A stretch of DNA of 64,000 nt from Anaerococcus pacaensis 9403502. Lineage in GTDB: Bacteria; Bacillota; Clostridia; Tissierellales; Peptoniphilaceae. The notes under the pieces are model-generated. The model worked only from the letters and a program-made list of their open reading frames with translations. It did not search any database and had not been told where the DNA came from. The stretch is from the NCBI GenBank assembly GCA_000308255.3, contig HG326663.1, positions 515,085 to 579,084 of the forward strand, read 5' to 3'. Shown here piece after piece: positions 46,373-50,392 of this stretch; position 1 is the stretch's first letter, and each line of letters begins with the position of its first letter. The position numbers and the translations under genes were made by a program.

Positions 46373-46402
46373 AAATAACGCAGGTCTAAACCTGCATTAT
46401 TT
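46373..46402 (-). terminator. Terminator of the first CAP-like gene
   Basis: AATGCAGGT and ACCTGCGTT form a stem with a TTAG loop, followed on the minus strand by ATTTTTTT. Confidence 0.85.
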
Positions 46403-46408
46403 GTTATC

Positions 46409-47416
46409 TTAGTCAATATTTTTAAATTCACCTAGCATACCATAGGCGCTTTGTTGTAGATAATATGATTCATCCATGATTTCTACCAACTTATCCCATA
46501 CTCTTTCTACTGTCTTAGGATAATTTTCCATAAGATTATACGCTACATTTGATTGCATTTGCGCATCACTTAGGGCTTTTCTTAGAGCTTTTTTTGTCGA
46601 TTCTGATAACGGTTTAGCATTTGGATCACCTACATATAGTTTGTATGAACCATTGTAGCCTGTGGCTCTAGTGTCAGTAGTTTTCATTTGGTTTGCCACT
46701 AGCAAAACCCCGTAAGAAGGTGTACCATTAATTGAACTTAACTGTGCGTAGCCAAAGTCTGTTACAAATGGATCGATTATATTAAATAAGTCCGAAGACT
46801 CATTTGCCCAAACACCTTTAGCTGCTAGGAGATAATCATAAGATGAATATCCACCCATATCATCAAGTTTTTCTGTAGTCCAAATACCAACGGCTGTTGC
46901 TGGGTTCATACCCTCATAGCTTAATGCATGGAACTCATTTGAGTAGCCTGCAAGTAGCTTACTATGAGAATCAAATGGATTTGAACCATCTGCTCGATTG
47001 AAGGCAAAATCTGTAATCAAATCTTCATAGGCTCTTTGGATAGCGAATTGTTCTAGTCTAGTATTCCACTTGATAGCATTTACATAAGCTTCTTTGCTGC
47101 GTAGACCTGCTTCAAAGGCTACATCACGGATTTTCTCACCTTTTGAGTTCACTTCTTCCTCAAATGTGAAATAAATATCTTCTTTCCAAGCCTTAGCTCT
47201 TATTTTTTTGATTTCATTTAATACTTCCTTCTTTTGTGCTTCAGTTTGTGTAAGCTTTACAATGCTTTCTTTGAAGGCTGCATTTGGTAACGGAAAGCCA
47301 AGATCGAGTCTTTGAGGAGCCTCGCTTGCAAAGCTTGTATTTACTGGGCTTAAATTAAATGCCCCTAGAAAAGAAAAAGCTAAGCTTGCAACTGCTATTT
47401 TAAACACTTTTTTCAT
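46409..47416 (-). CDS. Secreted CAP-like protein, paralogue A
   Basis: 335 residues with a signal peptide (about 1-30, ending near TSFASEA). The central region resembles a CAP/SCP domain: EAYVNAIKWNTRLEQFAIQRAYED near 108-131 followed by FAFNRADGS, in place of the usual FSHxRPDG with its His. The C-terminal 60 residues hold the repeat module shared by the cluster (VAYNLMENYPKTVERVWDKL). There is no LPXTG or membrane anchor, so the protein is secreted or held by the module. Target unknown. It has its own terminator. Confidence 0.7.
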   Translation of the reverse strand: MKKVFKIAVASLAFSFLGAFNLSPVNTSFASEAPQRLDLGFPLPNAAFKESIVKLTQTEAQKKEVLNEIKKIRAKAWKEDIYFTFEEEVNSKGEKIRDVAFEAGLRSKEAYVNAIKWNTRLEQFAIQRAYEDLITDFAFNRADGSNPFDSHSKLLAGYSNEFHALSYEGMNPATAVGIWTTEKLDDMGGYSSYDYLLAAKGVWANESSDLFNIIDPFVTDFGYAQLSSINGTPSYGVLLVANQMKTTDTRATGYNGSYKLYVGDPNAKPLSESTKKALRKALSDAQMQSNVAYNLMENYPKTVERVWDKLVEIMDESYYLQQSAYGMLGEFKNID

Positions 47417-47516
47417 AATATCCCCCGATAATTAATTTTCTAACTTTATTATATAACATTTTAACGCGCATAACTATACGTTAAGTAAATTTAACAAAAC
47501 GGGCTGGGGCCTGGTG

Positions 47517-48236
47517 TTATTTAATCTCTTCTAATAGTTCATTTGCAAGTCTGATAGTTTCCTTAGCATCTTTTAGCATCTTTTCTAATTTTTCACGGAC
47601 ATTTGCTACTGTCTTTGGGAAATTAATCATTAGATTTTCTGCTATATTCACTTCTTTTTGAGCACGATCTCTCGCCTCTTTAAGTTCCACAAATACTTCA
47701 TTCTGAGCTTCTTCTTTTATTTCTGTGCTAGGAGCATCTAACTCTGATGTGATTTTTAGGATATGTTCTTCTTCTATATGGTTAACTTCATTATCTATAA
47801 CTTGTGTATTTGTGATTTCGATTGAAGGAATTGTAGGTACTAGTGGTACAATTTTTTCATAAGTTTTTTCTATGATAGTTTCAGTCTTGTTAACTGTGGT
47901 AGTGGTGGTTGATCCATTATTTTCACTATAATTTTCTCCAACCATTCCATCGCCATCTTTATCATGCATAAATGGATATAGCCAATCTTTCCCCTTTACT
48001 ATAGGTAGTTGATACTTGCCATAAGCGCGGAGCTCATCAATTTTTATCGGTACTCTACCATCTGTATTCATCTTATCAAGCTCTTCTTGCTGATCTTTAG
48101 ATAGCTTAACATACTCTTGCCTATAATTCTTATTCTTATAAAAAGGTGAACTTGTATCTGCAAATGCCTGGCTAGTTCCGATAAACGCTAGAGATGCGGC
48201 AAGTCCTAATGCTGATAATTTTCTGATATTTTTCAT
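47517..48236 (-). CDS. Secreted protein with calcium-loop-like motif and the shared C-terminal module
   Basis: 239 residues with a signal peptide (cut near SQAFADT). No CAP domain: the mid region has WLYPFMHDKDGDGMVGE near residues 83-99, whose DKDGDGMVGE segment resembles an EF-hand or dockerin calcium loop, then a Thr-rich linker of alternating hydrophobic repeats. The C-terminal 60 residues (VNIAENLMINFPKTVANVREKL) match the other three proteins of the cluster. AGGAGG lies before the ATG. It looks like a shorter cousin of the CAP proteins, built on the same C-terminal module. Confidence 0.65.
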   Translation of the reverse strand: MKNIRKLSALGLAASLAFIGTSQAFADTSSPFYKNKNYRQEYVKLSKDQQEELDKMNTDGRVPIKIDELRAYGKYQLPIVKGKDWLYPFMHDKDGDGMVGENYSENNGSTTTTTVNKTETIIEKTYEKIVPLVPTIPSIEITNTQVIDNEVNHIEEEHILKITSELDAPSTEIKEEAQNEVFVELKEARDRAQKEVNIAENLMINFPKTVANVREKLEKMLKDAKETIRLANELLEEIK

Positions 48237-48308
48237 ATTTCCTCCTATAATGATTATTATCTATATTATGTATATATTTATCCAATTATATATAATAATA
48301 AACAAAAA

Positions 48309-48332
48309 GACCCCAACTGGGGCCTTGAAATT
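48309..48332 (-). terminator. Terminator after paralogue C
   Basis: On the minus strand GGCCCCA and TGGGGTC form a stem with a GT loop, followed by TTTTTG. Confidence 0.85.
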
Positions 48333-49343
48333 TTATTTAACTGGAACTAGCTCGTAAGCTTCTTCTAGTGTTGCTTTAGCATCATTCAGTAACTTATATA
48401 ATTTGTCTTGAACTTTGCTTATAGTTTTTGGGAAGTTTTGTTGTAGATTTTCTACCACTGCTATTTGAGATTCAGCATCCTTAATCGCTTTTTTTAGAGC
48501 TTTTTCAGTTGCTTCAGGAAGTGGCTCATATTTTGGATTACCATAACTCATCTTGTATGTGCCATTGAAGTCTTTTTTGTCACCTTGGATTGGGTCATAT
48601 CCATATAAAAGTACAGCCGCTGTTTTGCCTGTTTTTGGATTGTGAACTTGACCGTAGCCTACAGATACAAATGTTGGCTGACTCATCAGCATTGGCATAA
48701 CTATATTAAAAGTAGAGCCTTTTGAATTTTTATATTCTTCATATAGACCAGGATTGCCATCTTTACCAAACACCAAATTTTCAAACATTTCATCAACCGT
48801 AAATTCAAAGTCATTTACTACCCTCATATGAGGACCTTCGTTGAATTTTTCCCTAATTGATTCATCTCTAGTAGAAGATGTGATATAAAAAGTTTCATCA
48901 CTGAAATTATCTGGCCTGTATCCACTTGGCCCAGTTAATGTTAGTTCAAAGGCTCTTTGAATAGCCATTTTCTCTAGCTCATAACTATAGCCAAATTCAT
49001 TCGCATAGCTGTCCTTACCAGGACCCATGTAATAGTTGTGGTGATCTTTATTATATTCTCTTACTGGAGTAGGTTTTTCAACTAACCATGAAGTAATATG
49101 AGCATTGTCATCCCAAGCCTTCTCTCTGACTTTTATCAGATTCATCATCACTCTATCACGTACATTATCATCAATATTGACATCAACCTCAGTTTCCCTA
49201 TAAGGAGCATTTGGCATATTTACTCCAAGATCCAGCTTTTGCACTTGTTTAATTGCGTAAGACACATCATTATCTGCATTTGCCGCCATAAATGAAAAGC
49301 TCATGGCAAGAGCTAGGGCTGATATTTTAATGATATTATTCAT
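48333..49343 (-). CDS. Secreted CAP-like protein, paralogue C
   Basis: 336 residues with a signal peptide (cut near AANADN). A CAP-like domain with YELEKMAIQRAFELTLTGPSGYRPD near residues 134-158; the catalytic-type His before RPD is not present. FVSVGYGQVHNPKTGKTAAVLLYG near 233-256 fits the second half of the fold. The C-terminal module reads VVENLQQNFPKTISKVQDKL. It starts eight bases after the preceding CAP gene, so the two form one transcript that ends in a strong terminator. Confidence 0.7.
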   Translation of the reverse strand: MNNIIKISALALAMSFSFMAANADNDVSYAIKQVQKLDLGVNMPNAPYRETEVDVNIDDNVRDRVMMNLIKVREKAWDDNAHITSWLVEKPTPVREYNKDHHNYYMGPGKDSYANEFGYSYELEKMAIQRAFELTLTGPSGYRPDNFSDETFYITSSTRDESIREKFNEGPHMRVVNDFEFTVDEMFENLVFGKDGNPGLYEEYKNSKGSTFNIVMPMLMSQPTFVSVGYGQVHNPKTGKTAAVLLYGYDPIQGDKKDFNGTYKMSYGNPKYEPLPEATEKALKKAIKDAESQIAVVENLQQNFPKTISKVQDKLYKLLNDAKATLEEAYELVPVK

Positions 49344-49351
49344 AATCTCTC

Positions 49352-50392
49352 CTAGTTACCTAACATTTTGTTTGCTTCTTCGATCAGAAGTTTAGAGTCT
49401 TTTACCATTTGACTTAGCTTACCACGTACGTTTTTAACTGTATTTGGGAAGTTGTTTAATAGGTTTTCTGCAACACTGATTTGAGCCTTGGCATCTGCTA
49501 CTGCTTTTTCTAGGCTAGCACGTACATCTGTTGGGAGTTCGTCAGTTTTTGTAGTATTTGCCTGAGGCTTGATTGCTTCTGGAGCTTTTTCTTCTACTAC
49601 TTTTGGTTTTCCTACATAAAGAGTAGTCTCGCCTACTAGGTTTGCAGAAGCTTGGTTGTTGCTTGTATTTTTGAAGCTAAATACAGCAAGGCCTATGTTC
49701 CATTTGTCAGATGTGTTGTTTAGCTCAGCATAGCCGATGTGTTTAAATTGTGGGTTTAGGATGTTGTGTAAGTGGCCGTTGGCTGGAGTGAATGCGCCGT
49801 TTGATTCTTTTAGTAATTGGTACTCACTTTTGTTGTTGTAATTTTTTCTAGGACCAAATGACCATTGTTCAAAAGAGCTTGCTGGGCTTTGGATTCTGGT
49901 ATTACGAGCGATGTTTTCACCATTCGGTCTAACCCCTGATGTGGTTGTAGTGGTCATTCCGCTAGAACCATCAGGTCTATTGTGGCTCATGCCTGTGATG
50001 GTTTGTTCATAAGCTCTTTGGATAGCTATTCTTTCTAGGTCGATTGACCAAGATAGGCCATTGATGTAGGCTTCTTTGTTATTGTAACCGTAGGCTTTGG
50101 CTACATCTTGTAGTCTTTCTTTTTTAGTATTTGTATCATCTAGAGTAAAGAGGATGTTTTCATCCCACAGTTTTGCTCTGATGTCACGGACTTCTTTTAG
50201 GGATTCGGCTTTTAAGGCATCATTTTGTCTTAGATTGAATGTGTATTCTTTATAAGCTACATTTCCTGTATCCACATTTAGAACATAGTTTACGCTACTA
50301 GCTTCTGCTACTATTTGAGGATTGATTATACTTGCCCCTGCTATAGTAAATGTAAGGGCAAAGGTTAAACTTACTATTTTTTTGAAATTCAT
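49352..50392 (-). CDS. Secreted CAP-like protein, paralogue D
   Basis: 346 residues from the ATG at 50392, which follows AAGGAG by six bases; an ATG two codons earlier is too close to it. The signal peptide is about residues 1-32. The CAP-like domain is the most canonical of the cluster: WSIDLERIAIQRAYEQTITGMSHNRPDGS near 113-141 keeps the SHNRPDG pattern, and LNPQFKHIGYAELNN fits the next strand. A Pro/Lys-rich linker leads to the C-terminal module (VAENLLNNFPNTVKNVRGKL). It is the first gene of a two-gene transcript with paralogue C. Confidence 0.78.
   Translation of the reverse strand: MNFKKIVSLTFALTFTIAGASIINPQIVAEASSVNYVLNVDTGNVAYKEYTFNLRQNDALKAESLKEVRDIRAKLWDENILFTLDDTNTKKERLQDVAKAYGYNNKEAYINGLSWSIDLERIAIQRAYEQTITGMSHNRPDGSSGMTTTTTSGVRPNGENIARNTRIQSPASSFEQWSFGPRKNYNNKSEYQLLKESNGAFTPANGHLHNILNPQFKHIGYAELNNTSDKWNIGLAVFSFKNTSNNQASANLVGETTLYVGKPKVVEEKAPEAIKPQANTTKTDELPTDVRASLEKAVADAKAQISVAENLLNNFPNTVKNVRGKLSQMVKDSKLLIEEANKMLGN

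What the first reader, a model, noticed from the sequence alone, without database searches (positions are those of the whole stretch)
46409..50392. Tandem secreted proteins sharing a roughly 58-residue C-terminal helical module
Four adjacent secreted proteins end in the same pattern: A-x-x-[NL]-L-x-x-N-[FY]-P-x-T-[VI]-x-x-V-x-x-K-L followed by a charged helix. Three carry CAP-like domains and one a calcium-loop-like domain, so the module is shared across different N-terminal parts, as a cell-surface binding or docking domain would be. None has an LPXTG or other standard anchor. I do not know a named domain with this pattern.
Basis: partly seen in the sequence, partly recalled or inferred. Interest (0 to 1): 0.65.

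Follow-up and report, generated by a model that had tools for sequence, protein, structure and literature searches.

The report
Helical attachment module on Anaerococcus proteins
Many secreted proteins of the anaerobic bacterium Anaerococcus end in the same small two-helix piece, which probably holds them on the cell surface, perhaps by pairing with matching pieces on proteins fixed in the membrane or wall.

Summary
The last ~60 residues of four adjacent secreted proteins are homologous (p2-p4: 44% identity, E 8e-12) and are predicted to form a two-helix hairpin (pLDDT 94.3). Genome-wide it says more: 30 modules in 26 ORFs, in 23 of 31 Anaerococcus genomes and in no other of the 92 genera searched in the order. 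No Pfam, NCBIfam or PDB family fits. Carriers include CAP, GA, G5, 5'-nucleotidase, transglutaminase and FIVAR proteins. Where relatives use lipid, sortase or CWB2 anchors on related domains, the module tends to stand in their place. One small lipoprotein, little more than a tethered acidic module, occurs in 21 of 23 module-bearing and 0 of 8 module-less genomes; a sortase-tailed wall protein has a detectable module in 15 of 21 genomes where it was found. Best reading: a genus-specific, non-covalent surface-attachment module, perhaps working by module-module docking. Attachment is supported by architecture only; docking is inference; no binding was tested.

The parts
46409..47416 (-). p1, secreted degenerate CAP-like protein, 335 aa, C-terminal module
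   Evidence: ORF; paralog of p4, E 3e-48; CAP 14.8 bits, below the cut-off
46421..46618 (-). module of p1
   Evidence: E 2.8e-21
47517..48236 (-). p2, secreted 239-aa protein with a calcium-loop-like segment and C-terminal module
   Evidence: ORF; no CAP hit; significant similarity to p1, p3, p4 only in the module and, to p3, in the signal peptide
47520..47717 (-). module of p2
   Evidence: E 1.4e-19
47934..47963 (-). DKDGDGMVGE loop of p2 (Excalibur-like, by eye; name recalled)
   Evidence: sequence; no Pfam hit; position kept in relatives as DRNKNGQVGE or DKNKNGEVGE
48333..49343 (-). p3, secreted degenerate paralog of p4, 336 aa, C-terminal module
   Evidence: ORF; E 2e-29 to p4; no CAP hit in Pfam
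48336..48530 (-). module of p3
   Evidence: E 2.1e-19
49352..50392 (-). p4, secreted CAP protein, 346 aa from the better start, C-terminal module
   Evidence: ORF (there from 50398); CAP 34.9 bits
49715..50065 (-). CAP domain of p4
   Evidence: PF00188, E 3e-8, residues 112-228 of the 348-aa reading
49355..49546 (-). module of p4, the copy whose structure was predicted
   Evidence: E 9.4e-24; pLDDT 94.3
48307..48326 (-). terminator-like hairpin after p3, so p4-p3 may be one transcript
   Evidence: 8 found in the region, 2.4 expected from shuffles; consensus match only
46373..46402 (-). terminator-like hairpin after p1

Best explanation
The module is an Anaerococcus-specific, non-covalent surface-attachment domain. 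Each copy is an antiparallel two-helix hairpin with a nearly invariant turn proline. Fused to one end of secreted proteins (CAP, albumin-binding GA, G5, 5'-nucleotidase, transglutaminase, FIVAR), it keeps them on the cell in place of a lipid, sortase or CWB2 anchor. The most likely route is helix-bundle docking. Nearly every module-bearing genome makes one small lipoprotein (lipid anchor, acidic low-complexity tether, acidic module), and many also make a sortase-linked wall protein with an internal module; these would be fixed receptors at membrane and wall, and soluble 'client' proteins would pair with them, and perhaps with each other, through the exposed apolar seam of the hairpin. Shown by computation: homology, distribution, carriers, predicted hairpin, anchor replacement by architecture, the conserved lipoprotein and wall protein. 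Inferred: attachment (about 0.7) and docking as its route (about 0.35; I had 0.4 before one search showed a wall protein without a module).
For: Of 145 distinct module ORFs in the fetched loci (chosen mostly by module hits), 120 carry the module at the C-terminus; of 13 counted as N-terminal, 12 carry it or a tandem pair behind the signal peptide and one is a short wall protein; 12 are internal, all wall proteins; 138 pass a signal-peptide heuristic. Anchor replacement: (a) in this genome two CAP lipoproteins (L061, L062) are related to two CAP proteins with tandem N-terminal modules and no lipobox (L064, L065), 29-34% identity, E 7e-28 to 2e-57; (b) in a family sample of 120 genomes, 17 p4-like CAP matches lie in 11 Anaerococcus genomes and 16 of 17 end in the module, the 17th being broken, while 3 of 3 in another genus carry three CWB2 repeats; (c) 16 of 19 GA frames in module-bearing genomes end in the module, while 3 of 3 GA-like proteins read in module-less genomes end in a sortase-type tail. 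Receptors: lipoprotein in 21 of 23 module-bearing and 0 of 8 module-less genomes. Lipoprotein modules have net charge -9.0 (sd 2.4, n = 20), wall-protein modules +2.8 (n = 13), others +1.8 (n = 112); 20 of 20 lipoprotein modules keep E13, F17, R24 and E27 on helix 1. Helix 2 has a second apolar seam (columns 47, 54, 61).
Against: No binding or localisation data. Presence of module and lipoprotein is one split in the genus tree, so co-occurrence counts once. Of 21 genomes where the wall protein was found, 15 have a detectable module in it (E < 0.02), one fragment is weak (G023), and G005, G006, G017, G019 and G022 show none; so the wall protein is not a universal receptor. The charge contrast may only reflect an acid-rich lipoprotein; own-genome clients are near neutral (-5 to +6). 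Co-divergence of wall-protein and lipoprotein modules beyond GltX (partial r 0.49, p 0.0005) is matched in part by a control region (0.31, p 0.0025). GA and GA-like are different Pfam families, and GA-like was not searched for in module-bearing genomes. A wall-polymer ligand fits the anchor-replacement data equally well. Modules on proteins that already have a lipid or sortase anchor argue against anchoring as the sole role. Large G5 proteins remain sortase-anchored in module-bearing genomes.
Confidence: 0.48

Rival explanations
1. Each module binds a cell-wall component directly (secondary polymer, teichoic acid or peptidoglycan), as SLH or CWB2 repeats do, with no protein receptor.
For: The module stands in the place of CWB2 and of sortase or lipid anchors; tandem copies occur in 8 of 145 ORFs, as avidity would favour; K43 in 41 of 49 and K35 in 26 of 49 modules of A3.
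Against: Few conserved aromatics and an apolar seam fit protein-protein contact better than sugar binding (inference). It does not explain why a membrane lipoprotein and a sortase-linked protein also carry it, nor why lipoprotein modules are strongly acidic.
Confidence: 0.32
2. A general oligomerisation device: carriers pair with each other in the envelope or medium, with retention on the cell a side effect.
For: Hairpin with more apolar surface than a two-helix coil needs (inference); only generic hairpins as structural neighbours.
Against: Does not account for replacement of anchors.
Confidence: 0.12
3. Host- or neighbour-binding domain (adhesin head).
For: Some carriers are GA or G5 surface proteins; the species are human commensals (recalled).
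Against: Also carried by a 5'-nucleotidase, a transglutaminase-like protein and a lipoprotein that is nearly the module alone; terminal position is typical of anchors.
Confidence: 0.05
4. Inert expansion of a fast-evolving helical tail with no attachment role.
For: Mean identity among client modules only 29%; p1, p3 and p4 are simple paralogs.
Against: Proline 34 in 49 of 49 and leucine 44 in 46 of 49 modules of A3; gap-poor alignment over unrelated carriers; both N- and C-terminal placement.
Confidence: 0.03

Closest known systems
CWB2 (PF04122) and SLH (PF00395) cell-wall binding repeats
   Same: Non-covalent surface attachment of many different secreted proteins; CWB2 sits on the CAP relatives of another genus of the family. 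Passages of the review PMC5817068 place CWB2 and SLH proteins at wall polymers.
   Different: No Pfam match of any of 49 modules; a two-helix hairpin of about 60 residues, single in 137 of 145 ORFs, not three repeats.
Cohesin-dockerin of cellulosomes
   Same: Idea of a docking module on soluble proteins captured by receptors fixed on the surface (PMC5817068 passages).
   Different: No dockerin or cohesin match; here receptor and client would carry versions of the same module, and the receptor has one copy.
LPXTG-type sortase anchoring
   Same: Same surface outcome; the wall protein of this system has such a tail.
   Different: Only 13 of 145 module ORFs have the tail, all orthologs of the wall protein (after removing two false pattern hits); the window proteins have none.
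FAF of Finegoldia magna
   Same: Coiled-coil, wall-anchored, self-associating surface protein of another Gram-positive anaerobic coccus (PMC2628433, passages read); resembles the wall protein in layout.
   Different: Sequence not compared here; no module found outside Anaerococcus in the order at E <= 0.001.
HR1 domain (PKN1) and other antiparallel helical hairpins
   Same: Fold-level similarity only: 4nkg, TM 0.68, E 3, Z 7.4.
   Different: Not significant; a generic arrangement.

Membership tests
CAP / SCP superfamily (PF00188), N-terminal part of p4 | Score over Pfam's gathering cut-off | tested here: met
   34.9 bits, cut-off 21.1
CAP / SCP superfamily (PF00188), p1 and p3 | Score over Pfam's gathering cut-off | tested here: not met
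   p1 14.8 bits, p3 no hit; both are full-length homologs of p4
CWB2 (PF04122) | Module matches the profile | tested here: not met
   Not among the 17 families hit by any of 49 modules at E <= 0.01
SLH (PF00395) | Module matches the profile | tested here: not met
   Not among the 17 families hit
Dockerin / cohesin | Module matches a Pfam dockerin or cohesin profile | tested here: not met
   Not among the 17 families hit
Dockerin / cohesin | Specific binding to a fixed receptor protein | not testable with these tools
   No complex prediction or binding assay
FIVAR (PF07554) | Module matches the profile | tested here: not met
   No module hit at E <= 0.01; FIVAR occurs elsewhere in some carriers
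GA module (PF01468) | Module matches the profile | tested here: not met
   No module hit; GA is a separate domain in some carriers
Sortase substrates | C-terminal xxxTG, hydrophobic stretch, basic tail on the four window proteins | tested here: not met
   Pattern and profile test
Non-covalent surface-attachment modules (functional class) | Terminal position on varied secreted proteins | tested here: met
   120 of 145 ORFs C-terminal, 12 N-terminal behind the signal peptide
Non-covalent surface-attachment modules (functional class) | Retention of the carrier on the cell | not testable with these tools
   Needs fractionation or a fusion-binding assay
HR1 / helical hairpin folds | Significant structural match | tested here: inconclusive
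   No Foldseek E <= 0.001; Z up to 8.1, in the range of common helical arrangements

The most novel reading that the evidence does not exclude
A new, genus-specific surface-assembly system: an acidic helical-hairpin receptor tethered to the membrane by a lipoprotein, joined in many species by a hairpin on a sortase-linked wall protein, captures up to some two dozen soluble secreted proteins through pairing of homologous hairpins: a cohesin-dockerin-like system built from one fold.
Probability: 0.27. Interest if true: 0.8.

Novelty: new variant of a known kind. Interest (0 to 1): 0.6.

Why it matters
Anaerococcus is a human skin and mucosal commensal and opportunist (recalled) whose surface biology seems little studied: searches for Anaerococcus with CAP domain, with surface protein/adhesin/cell wall anchor, with sortase, and with lipoprotein plus surface proteins listed no paper on this module by title; most subscription journals are not held. 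If right, a ~60-residue tag marks about 26 proteins of this strain as surface-held rather than merely secreted, names a membrane lipoprotein and a wall protein as partners to test, and offers a small genus-specific display tag. It also suggests that anchors are exchanged on related CAP and GA-type proteins within one bacterial family.

Tried and rejected
Full-length model of p4 from three sequences failed (pLDDT 34.5) and was not used. Foldseek and VIA-align gave only generic helical hairpins; HR1 is not claimed. PDB profile search: best E 0.016, partial, to a sensor protein. Scattered coiled-coil Pfam and NCBIfam hits to a few modules differ between members and were dismissed. A phylum sample of 398 genomes gave one weak, partial match outside the genus (G459, E 1e-4, 31 of 66 positions), and A1 gave one at E 0.003 in another genus of the family (G033); neither is counted as a module. 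Co-occurrence as statistical evidence was rejected: the module-less species are one clade (100/99 support; 7 of 8 in the tree, G003 left out because its GltX is split). The mirror-tree test was inconclusive because the control also correlates. My pattern for sorting tails gave 15 hits; two (L023_249, L019_1444) were false by eye, leaving 13. GA proteins of module-less G008 and G030 were not used as clean anchor-replacement cases: a sortase-type tail lies beyond masked bases in another frame. Three of 19 GA frames in module-bearing genomes lack a seen module: one (G000, 740 aa) runs into masked bases, two (G021, 779 and 110 aa) have none in the stretch read. A late check of three genomes without a recognised wall protein: G022 has a short relative with the same signal peptide and a similar tail but no module, which counts against the wall protein as a general receptor and made me lower docking from 0.4 to 0.35 and the novel case from 0.3 to 0.27; G010 shows only the tail at a contig edge; G004 an unrelated sortase-tailed protein. 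Paper searches listed nothing relevant.
Full report
WHAT IS THERE. The window is part of a 2.37-Mb genome. Four minus-strand genes, p4-p3-p2-p1, encode secreted proteins of 346, 336, 239 and 335 aa. p4 and p3 are 8 bases apart and may be one transcript ending at a terminator-like hairpin behind p3; another such hairpin follows p1. Their last ~60 residues align with 12 invariant columns.

CORRECTION TO THE FINDING. p1, p3 and p4 are paralogs over their whole length (E 2e-29 to 3e-50). Only p4 is a CAP protein by Pfam's cut-off; p1 and p3 are diverged copies. So only p2, whose N-terminal part is different and bears a DKDGDG loop, shows module sharing inside the cluster (p2-p4 44% over 61 residues, E 8e-12).

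DISTRIBUTION. A four-row profile found 31 places at E <= 1 in this genome. A 49-row profile A3 (proline 34 in 49 of 49; leucine 44 in 46 of 49) found 30 at E < 1e-7, the next at 0.06; these lie in 26 ORFs, of which 24 pass a signal-peptide heuristic (one of the other two starts in masked bases, one has no clear start). In the order, 23 of 249 genomes match at E <= 0.001, all of the same genus: 23 of 31 genomes of that genus, 1 of 92 genera (up to 24 candidates per genome were scored). In a phylum sample 2 of 398 match: own genome and one weak partial hit. The 49 modules share no consistent Pfam or NCBIfam family and no PDB sequence is close.

STRUCTURE. With nine sequences from the window and L086 only, the module is predicted as a hairpin, helices 6-32 and 41-62, pLDDT 94.3, pTM 0.75. 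Structural neighbours are generic hairpins. Column composition shows the expected core on helix 1 (12, 16, 19, 23, 26, 30) and helix 2 (37, 40, 44, 48, 51, 55, 58, 62), plus further apolar positions (29 on helix 1; 47, 54, 61 on helix 2) that a lone hairpin would probably leave exposed. This suggests partner helices (inference; I had no coordinates for a surface calculation).

CARRIERS. Own-genome carriers include transglutaminase-like, FIVAR, GA, G5 + GA, 5'-nucleotidase and CAP proteins (the two N-terminal-module CAP proteins pass the CAP cut-off and fall just below it). Across fetched loci, 145 distinct ORFs carry modules: 120 at the C-terminus, 13 counted as N-terminal (12 transglutaminase, nucleotidase or CAP-type proteins, one a short wall protein), 12 internal, all of the wall-protein family; 8 have two modules; 138 pass the signal-peptide heuristic. 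These loci were mostly chosen by module hits, so they are not a random sample.

ANCHOR REPLACEMENT. (a) Own genome: five CAP matches. p4 has a C-terminal module; L064 and L065 have two modules behind the signal peptide (L065's gene is broken by a stop); L061 and L062, near-identical to each other, have no module but a lipobox. L061/L062 and L064/L065 are related (29-34% identity, E 7e-28 to 2e-57). (b) p4-like CAP proteins: in a family sample of 120 genomes, 17 matches in 11 Anaerococcus genomes, of which 16 end in the module and one is broken by a stop; three matches in another genus of the family carry three CWB2 repeats, E 7e-41 to 7e-47. (c) GA domains: 21 frames in 14 of 31 genomes; of 19 in module-bearing genomes, 16 end in the module. 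In module-less genomes, three GA-like (PF17573) proteins (G001, G007, G009; 3 of 3 scanned) end in a sortase-type NVQTG or NVNTG tail. GA and GA-like are separate Pfam families and GA-like was not sought in module-bearing genomes. Sortase use persists beside the module: all 31 genomes have such tails, and several large G5 proteins keep them.

CANDIDATE RECEPTORS. One small lipoprotein (lipobox, acidic low-complexity stretch, C-terminal module; 146-186 aa) is found in 21 of 23 module-bearing genomes (G017 only in part, G004 not) and in 0 of 8 module-less ones. As it is little else than anchor and module, its function is probably that of the module. Its modules have net charge -9.0 (sd 2.4, range -12 to -5, n = 20) against +2.8 (13 wall proteins) and +1.8 (112 others). 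E13, F17, R24, A25 and E27 are kept in 20 of 20, R or K at 20 too, although mean identity is 47%; 13, 17, 20, 24 and 27 lie off the core, on one stripe. A second protein, sortase-tailed (NAKTG...LAAASVAYAASK) and coiled-coil, was recognised by eye in 20 of 23 module-bearing genomes; an internal module is detected at E < 0.02 in 15, weakly in one fragment (G023), and not in G005, G006, G017, G019, where other helical sequence lies at that place. A short relative in G022 has no module, G010 shows only the tail at a contig edge, and G004 none in the stretch read. In module-less genomes the best-matching tails belong to other proteins. Right after the module it has a signal-peptidase-like TAYA/AEE segment, 18 of 19 by pattern. 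In 10 of the 19 genomes with both full genes the two lie 3-9 kb apart (coordinates: G002, G005, G006, G016, G019, G020, G021, G027, G029, own); in the others they are far apart or on different contigs. The lipoprotein is thus the more constant candidate.

MECHANISM. Terminal placement on unrelated secreted proteins and replacement of three known anchor types argue for surface attachment. A nearly bare module on a lipoprotein, another on a wall-linked protein in many species, and the apolar seam argue for docking between hairpins. The charge contrast is suggestive, but own-genome clients are near neutral (-5 to +6; lipoprotein -11). Co-divergence of the two receptor modules is beyond GltX (partial r 0.49, p 0.0005), yet a control region does nearly as well (0.31, p 0.0025; 17 species). 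Presence and absence is one event on the tree and so is no independent statistical support. Direct wall-polymer binding remains a serious rival.

LITERATURE. Passages of PMC5817068 list known wall-binding domains and the cohesin-dockerin arrangement; none of the passages shown describes such a module. Passages of PMC2628433 describe FAF of Finegoldia magna, a self-associating, coiled-coil, wall-anchored protein; I did not compare its sequence. The listings show no paper on this module by title; listings were capped where many papers matched, and subscription journals are mostly not held.

VERDICT. A real, apparently undescribed, genus-restricted surface module; new variant of a known kind (non-covalent attachment modules). 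Its binding partner is the open question, now with two named candidates.

Noticed in passing
L056:572-2527 (-) and orthologs: The sortase-tailed wall proteins carry a conserved signal-peptidase-like TAYA/AEE segment directly behind the module (18 of 19 by pattern; two more by eye). Cleavage there would leave the module at a C-terminus, as in the clients.
   Followed up: partly
L061:4244-5725 and L062:4684-6168: Own genome holds two copies of a CAP lipoprotein gene (98.5% identical over 1.7 kb); the second lies just behind a transposase-like gene pair (L062:3023-4404, by eye).
   Followed up: no
L065:3989-5125 (-): A CAP gene with tandem modules is interrupted by an in-frame TAA, so probably a pseudogene.
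   Followed up: no
L055:11946-16775 (-), L073:8951-11980, L144, L145, L146: Next to the module lipoprotein lies a large protein (FIVAR by Pfam in L055; just under the cut-off in L073); in L073, L144, L145 and L146 it ends in an unusual IVKTG or IVRTG sortase-like tail.
   Followed up: no
L054, L056, L057, L058, L059 carriers: A subgroup of modules is preceded by a Y-x-x-I-x-x-G-Y/T-Y-like stretch (by eye), suggesting an extended ~85-residue form.
   Followed up: no
L188, L189, L190: In another genus of the family CAP proteins carry three CWB2 repeats (PF04122, E 7e-41 to 7e-47).
   Followed up: yes
window 1-31000: Long run of sugar-catabolism-like genes (kinases, aldolases, isomerases, a sugar ABC transporter, DeoR-type regulators); function read by eye only.
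   Followed up: no
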